Origin: a virus
Length of the DNA: 32,358 nt
Virus record (IMG/VR): IMGVR_UViG_3300025889_000535
Span: 1 to 32,358 of that record
Strand: one strand, 5' to 3'
Under the pieces are notes generated by a model that was given only the letters and a program-made list of their open reading frames with translations, made no database searches and was not told the DNA's origin. The translations under genes and the position numbers were made by a program. Position 1 is the stretch's first letter. Every line of letters starts with the position of its first letter. This document shows positions 29,467-29,538 of this stretch, piece after piece.

Positions 29467-29538
29467 ATGTGGACAAAGCCATCAGCAACTGAAATGAGAT
29501 TCGGTTTCGAAGTTACAATGTACGTTTGCAACAAGTAA
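29467..29538 (+). CDS. pqqA: PqqA, precursor peptide of the cofactor PQQ
   Basis: PqqA is the ribosomal peptide from which pyrroloquinoline quinone is made: PqqE (radical SAM, with chaperone PqqD) joins Glu and Tyr side chains, and the product is cut out and oxidised by later Pqq enzymes. The 23-residue product starts MWTKP and holds [14 protein letters not shown], with Glu15 and Tyr19 in the EVTMY motif at the same positions and same total length as Klebsiella PqqA (EVTLY). AAGGA lies eight bases before the ATG. It has its own promoter and is the only plus-strand gene in the right half, ending directly against the stop of the next minus-strand gene. No other pqq gene is in the window, so host PqqB-F would be needed. 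Confidence 0.92.
   Translation: [23 protein letters not shown]

What the first reader, a model, noticed from the sequence alone, without database searches (positions are those of the whole stretch)
29467..29538. Phage-encoded PqqA, the PQQ precursor peptide, as a 23-codon gene
The peptide has the exact length and residue positions of proteobacterial PqqA: MWTKP start, Gly13, Glu15, Tyr19, Asn22. Glu15 and Tyr19 are the residues that PqqE crosslinks. It has its own promoter and Shine-Dalgarno and is on the opposite strand from all genes around it. A phage supplying only the substrate peptide would raise PQQ output through host enzymes, supporting PQQ-dependent dehydrogenases such as methanol dehydrogenase during infection. 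It also points to a PQQ-making host, for example OM43-type methylotrophs. It would be missed by gene finders with a length cut-off. I cannot tell whether it has been reported.
Basis: partly seen in the sequence, partly recalled or inferred. Interest (0 to 1): 0.94.

Follow-up and report, generated by a model that had tools for sequence, protein, structure and literature searches.

The report
Phage gene for PQQ precursor peptide
A 23-codon gene in this marine phage encodes the peptide from which bacteria make the cofactor PQQ, and the same tiny, mostly unannotated gene recurs in unrelated phages of methanol-eating marine and freshwater bacteria, which suggests these phages top up the raw material for their host's methanol-burning enzyme.

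Summary
The finding is real. Window 29467-29538 (+) encodes [23 protein letters not shown], which scores at twice the curated cut-offs of both PqqA models. The window is a fragment of a MEP401-type Zobellviridae phage (TerL 83%, capsid 81% to MEP402), so an OM43-type methylotroph host is likely. In relatives it holds its sequence while synonymous sites and the neighbouring primase diverge. Hosts keep about three pqqA copies but one PqqE; PqqA supply is reported as rate-determining in Methylovorus (cited in PMC11317620). Best explanation: a self-contained promoter-leader-pqqA cassette feeding substrate to host PqqD/E, sustaining PQQ and methanol oxidation during infection (inferred). Prior report: PqqA with methanol dehydrogenase in a Lake Baikal phage (PMC7678222), so the kind is known. 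New are its recurrence in every methylophage isolate seen, its substrate-only form, its mobile cassette character and its leader hairpin.

The parts
29467..29538 (+). pqqA, 23 codons plus TAA: [23 protein letters not shown] (Glu15 and Tyr19 are the pair PqqE cross-links)
   Evidence: PF08042 43.3 bits; TIGR02107 44.7 bits; purifying selection
29453..29458 (+). Shine-Dalgarno AAAGGA, 8 nt before the ATG
   Evidence: sequence; AGGAG-type site present before nearly all viral copies
29406..29414 (+). extended -10 element TGTTATAAT (putative promoter, no -35 recognised)
   Evidence: sequence; TATAAT kept in all 16 relatives with pqqA at this site listed; not listed by the generic scan
29420..29441 (+). 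perfect 8-bp inverted repeat TATATACT-GAAAAA-AGTATATA, predicted 5'-leader hairpin
   Evidence: fold z -2.2, -7.0 kcal/mol; relatives have different stem sequences at the same place
28657..29361 (-). DNA primase-position gene, divergent neighbour of pqqA
   Evidence: 47% identity to MEP402 gp11 annotated DNA primase; no Pfam match
29539..29739 (-). 66-aa ORF, convergent neighbour; homologue of MEP402 gp10, which abuts primase directly there
   Evidence: 68% identity over 50 residues to MEP402 4567-4716

Best explanation
The phage carries a small self-contained cassette (extended -10 promoter, 5' stem-loop leader, Shine-Dalgarno, pqqA) that makes extra PqqA during infection of an OM43-type methylotroph. 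Host PqqD binds the peptide, host PqqE cross-links Glu15 to Tyr19, and host PqqF/G, PqqB and PqqC finish PQQ. Each PQQ consumes one PqqA, while the enzymes are reused. Adding only the substrate therefore keeps PQQ, and the PQQ-dependent methanol dehydrogenase that powers the cell, supplied after host transcription declines. Shown here: the gene, its family, its selection, its recurrence, and the host having many pqqA but one pqqE. Inferred: expression, processing by host enzymes, a rise in PQQ and a benefit to the phage.
For: Family models hit well above cut-off. All nine cultured Methylophilales/LD28 phages that surfaced carry it (Venkman, P19250A, MEP301, MEP401, MEP402, four Melnitz), spanning Zobellviridae, Kyanoviridae and others. 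An 8-kb Venkman stretch shares only its 85-bp pqqA with podovirus ctXG6705, and MEP301 shares only about 75-90 bp at pqqA with P19250A, MEP401 and MEP402. Purifying selection: pN/pS 0.085 in a primase-bait set; 31 different DNAs encode one identical peptide. 27 of 32 relatives with primase at least 44% identical have pqqA in the record. OM43-genus genomes mostly carry three pqqA in 1.0-1.4 Mb, and each of 10 Methylophilaceae genomes has exactly one PqqE over cut-off. PMC4109929 reports 3-12 pqqA copies with single pqqBCDE. PMC11317620 cites Ge et al. 2015 that PqqA availability is rate-determining in Methylovorus MP688. A Baikal phage carries pqqA and related populations carry methanol dehydrogenase.
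Against: No expression, peptide or PQQ measurement was found for any of these phages. Some close relatives have an empty site (L258, L261), so the gene is not indispensable at this locus. The H5P1 host of several of the positive isolates was grown in medium containing added PQQ (PMC9004378), so need for it in culture is untested. pqqA was reported non-essential in M. extorquens, though its orphan copies were not examined there (cited).
Confidence: 0.77

Rival explanations
1. The phage peptide is a decoy: it occupies PqqD/PqqE and lowers PQQ synthesis, redirecting carbon or SAM away from methanol oxidation.
For: Made in large amounts from multicopy phage DNA, a near-copy of the substrate could act competitively (inference; no tool result supports it directly).
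Against: The reactive Glu15 and Tyr19 and the whole G-x-E-V-T-x-Y core are kept, and many viral peptides are identical to the host's. An inhibitor would not need a working substrate. The Baikal phage population with pqqA also encodes methanol dehydrogenase.
Confidence: 0.07
2. PqqA or its product serves another role in infection, for example lanthanide handling for XoxF or signalling, rather than bulk cofactor supply.
For: Orphan pqqA copies respond to lanthanide form in M. extorquens, and a role in lanthanide uptake was suggested (PMC11317620).
Against: Speculative, and it explains the conserved PqqE substrate core no better than cofactor supply does.
Confidence: 0.08
3. The gene is a neutral passenger picked up from the host, or a chance ORF.
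For: Short, and similar to host copies; absent at the same site in some relatives.
Against: Strong purifying selection with heavy synonymous change, different positions in related phages, and presence in every cultured methylophage that surfaced.
Confidence: 0.03
4. pqqA acts mainly as an RNA or recombination element (its hairpin leader and conserved 70 bp serve as a recombination site), the peptide being secondary.
For: pqqA is the only DNA shared between some unrelated phages, and its leader is structured.
Against: Conservation follows the codon pattern (third position 0.93 bits against 0.32 and 0.23), and the leader sequences differ between phages.
Confidence: 0.05

Closest known systems
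PqqA family (PF08042 / TIGR02107), PQQ precursor peptide of bacteria
   Same: Length, W-x-K-P leader, Glu-x-x-x-Tyr pair; scores at about twice the cut-offs; one substitution (A6S) from the peptide [23 protein letters not shown] found in a bacterial-genome record
   Different: Encoded by a phage, away from pqqBCDE, with its own putative promoter
PqqA reported in Lake Baikal T4-like phage population VP_266 (PMC7678222)
   Same: A virus of methylotrophs carrying pqqA, interpreted as support of methanol oxidation
   Different: Large T4-like freshwater phage that also carries methanol dehydrogenase; here a roughly 40-kb Zobellviridae-type phage with pqqA alone, and recurrence across phage groups was not reported there
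Orphan pqqA copies of Methylophilaceae (PMC4109929; Ge et al. 2015 as cited)
   Same: Stand-alone pqqA far from pqqE, several per genome, structured leaders
   Different: Chromosomal, under host control
Cyanophage psbA as an auxiliary metabolic gene (general knowledge, not searched here)
   Different: psbA encodes a protein that is damaged; pqqA encodes a peptide that is consumed as substrate

Membership tests
PqqA (TIGR02107 equivalog / PF08042) | Score above curated cut-off | tested here: met
   44.7 vs 20 bits; 43.3 vs 21.1 bits
PqqA (TIGR02107 equivalog / PF08042) | Glu and Tyr four residues apart near the C-terminus | tested here: met
   E15 and Y19; equivalent to Glu16/Tyr20 of M. extorquens PqqA (PMC10906245); kept in primase-bait relatives
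PqqA (TIGR02107 equivalog / PF08042) | Cross-linked by PqqE with PqqD and converted to PQQ | not testable with these tools
   needs biochemistry
Phage auxiliary metabolic gene | Lies in a genuine phage genome | tested here: met
   Terminase, portal, capsid, RNR and DNA polymerase match MEP402 at 56-83%
Phage auxiliary metabolic gene | Cellular metabolic homologue in the likely host, and selection for function | tested here: met
   Host PqqA; pN/pS 0.085
Phage auxiliary metabolic gene | Expressed in infection and changes host metabolism | not testable with these tools
   no transcriptome or metabolite data
Moron-type cassette (own promoter and terminator, discrete insertion) | Own promoter, and a discrete insertion at a site empty in relatives | tested here: met
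   Conserved -10; 177-bp interval here, while MEP402 gp10 and gp11 overlap and L258/L261 lack pqqA there
Moron-type cassette (own promoter and terminator, discrete insertion) | Own terminator | tested here: inconclusive
   none found in the window; a GC-rich hairpin follows pqqA in L254-L256

The most novel reading that the evidence does not exclude
PqqA supply is a near-universal requirement for phages of Methylophilales. Unrelated lytic phages have repeatedly acquired a promoter-hairpin-pqqA cassette because the host's PQQ pool, set by peptide rather than enzyme, limits energy during infection. The 5' hairpin is a shared phage and host device for high expression of this very short mRNA.
Probability: 0.4. 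Interest if true: 0.78.

Novelty: new member of a known kind. Interest (0 to 1): 0.64.

Why it matters
Marine methylotrophs such as OM43 turn over methanol in coastal waters, and how their phages reshape that metabolism is almost unknown. A 23-codon gene kept by every methylophage isolate seen here, yet missed in annotation, points to a specific, testable bottleneck (the PQQ precursor). It is also a possible marker for finding methylotroph phages in metagenomes, and shows that auxiliary-gene surveys with a length cut-off can miss important genes.

Tried and rejected
Their fixed residues bias conservation counts, so selection was also measured on a set found through the primase and on codons left free by the pattern (pN/pS 0.28). 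'Acinetobacter phage MD-2021a' was discarded as evidence: that record holds ppk and pqqB-D plus a radical SAM gene in order and looks bacterial. The radical SAM gene in the L036 record was considered as a phage PqqE and rejected (29.5 bits against a 381 cut-off). PQQ-dehydrogenase domains were not found in 50 pqqA-bearing records. Rfam gave no match in the window. TerL relatives looked negative for pqqA (1 of 20), but only one of those records holds the primase region, and that one has pqqA. PqqA seeds of Methylorubrum and Pseudomonas type found no further phages. A MAFFT alignment of the leaders misplaces the L272-type stems, so no pair counts were made from it.

Full report
OBSERVATION. Window 29467-29538 (+) reads [23 protein letters not shown] and a stop. 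It matches Pfam PqqA at 43.3 bits (cut-off 21.1) and the NCBI equivalog TIGR02107 at 44.7 bits (cut-off 20). No loose version of the motif appeared in 300 shuffled windows. The gene lies between two minus-strand genes: a primase-position gene (28657-29361) and a 66-aa ORF (29539-29739) whose stop directly abuts the pqqA stop.

WHAT PHAGE. G000 is a 32,358-base virus record. Its proteins match Methylophilales phage MEP402 (Zobellviridae, host OM43 strain FZCC0133): TerL 83%, major capsid 81%, ribonucleotide reductase 79%, portal 71%, helicase 63%, primase 47%. The large proteins downstream of the head genes are only weakly related. The record is probably about three quarters of a genome of roughly 43 kb (inference from MEP402). 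An OM43-type host is therefore likely, not proven.

RECURRENCE. tblastn of the peptide against 50,697 phage records finds it in Venkman, P19250A, MEP301, MEP401, MEP402 and four Melnitz phages, all isolated on OM43 or LD28 bacteria, and in the environmental podovirus ctXG6705. Records opened (Venkman, MEP401, MEP402, P19250A, MEP301, Melnitz EXVC044M, ctXG6705) show no pqqA annotation; in Melnitz and ctXG6705 a hypothetical gene is called on the opposite strand. The isolate papers read do not mention a pqq gene. I could not list every Methylophilales phage: taxonomy names MEP431-434 and Venkman EXVC038S, and these did not surface. An 8-kb piece of Venkman shares only 85 bp with ctXG6705, and those are pqqA. 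MEP301 shares only short matches at pqqA with P19250A, MEP401, MEP402 and ctXG6705.

SELECTION AND MOBILITY. To avoid bias from the pqqA pattern, relatives were also fetched through the primase (40 loci). Of the 32 with at least 44% primase identity, 27 records contain PqqA, usually just upstream of primase on the other strand. pN/pS among the eight distinct DNAs of the first scan of this set is 0.085. Over 104 distinct viral 23-codon DNAs, third positions vary most (0.93 bits against 0.32 and 0.23), and 31 different DNAs encode the identical peptide [23 protein letters not shown]. These include pattern-selected copies; at codons not fixed by the pattern the ratio is 0.28. L257 has pqqA at the primase site while its relative L258 has none there, and L261 also lacks it. 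In MEP402 the genes flanking this site overlap, and pqqA sits instead at 43050-43118, elsewhere in the genome. So pqqA behaves as a discrete cassette that is gained, lost and moved while its peptide is conserved.

THE LEADER. Relatives at this site keep TATAAT followed by an inverted repeat and then the Shine-Dalgarno, with different stem sequences: TATATACT/AGTATATA here, TATAGAAT/ATTCTATA in L271, ATAGTATA/TATACTAT in L272. After removal of near-duplicates, 70 viral pqqA leaders fold more stably than shuffles (mean z -1.19) and than leaders of other viral genes (mean z -0.35; Mann-Whitney p = 1e-6). Host pqqA leaders do so as well (mean z -1.08, p = 5e-5). Relatedness is only partly controlled. 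I read this as a stabilising 5' stem-loop, but an operator is possible.

HOSTS. Methylophilaceae genomes carry near-identical PqqA, in many copies: 2 to 12 in eight genomes searched. In the genus of an OM43-like genome (G002) 29 of 31 genomes have it, most with three copies in 1.0-1.4 Mb. Each of ten Methylophilaceae genomes, eight of them from that genus, has exactly one PqqE over cut-off. PMC4109929 reports 3-12 pqqA copies and, with one exception, single copies of the other pqq genes. PMC11317620 cites Ge et al. 2015 for PqqA availability being rate-determining in Methylovorus MP688. The pathway order (PqqE with PqqD cross-links Glu to Tyr; then PqqF/G, PqqB, PqqC) is from PMC10906245.

MECHANISM. 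PqqA is consumed one for one, while the enzymes turn over. A phage that adds only the peptide can raise or sustain PQQ through host enzymes. No PQQ-dehydrogenase domain was found in 50 pqqA-bearing records, and the one radical SAM found in 22 records is not PqqE, so substrate-only looks like the rule here, with the limit that most records are fragments. Expression, processing and benefit are inferred.

NOVELTY. Viral PqqA was reported in Lake Baikal T4-like phages of methylotrophs that also encode methanol dehydrogenase (PMC7678222), and pqqA is listed among viral genes in a reservoir study (PMC13188868). The finding is thus a new member of a known kind. Its recurrence across unrelated methylophages, its absence from annotations, its cassette character and its leader appear unreported in the library searched; subscription journals are mostly missing from that library.

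Noticed in passing
window 29420-29441; also L254, L271, L272 and others: An inverted repeat between the -10 and the Shine-Dalgarno of pqqA recurs with different stem sequences in many phages, and host pqqA leaders are also hairpin-rich. Stabilising RNA hairpin or operator is undecided.
   Followed up: partly
window 24996-27323: Family A DNA polymerase is split into two ORFs with two small unknown ORFs between them (84 and 64 aa, no Pfam match); MEP401/402 have a similar split with one small ORF.
   Followed up: partly
L248 (CAKLQF020000010.1): A record named Acinetobacter phage MD-2021a carries ppk and pqqB, pqqC, pqqD and a radical SAM gene in order, and looks like a mislabelled bacterial contig.
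   Followed up: partly
G128 (L300, L379): A relative with TerL 98% identical to the window has a primase only 46% identical, yet the same pqqA peptide at the same place, which suggests recombination between the structural and replication halves.
   Followed up: partly
L003, L009, L012, L016, L017, L092: A divergent group of viral PqqA peptides (for example [23 protein letters not shown]) that may belong to phages of other PQQ-making hosts.
   Followed up: no
G001 (L155, Methylophilales LSUCC0135): Twelve pqqA copies in a 2.1-Mb genome, two of them within 6 kb of each other.
   Followed up: no
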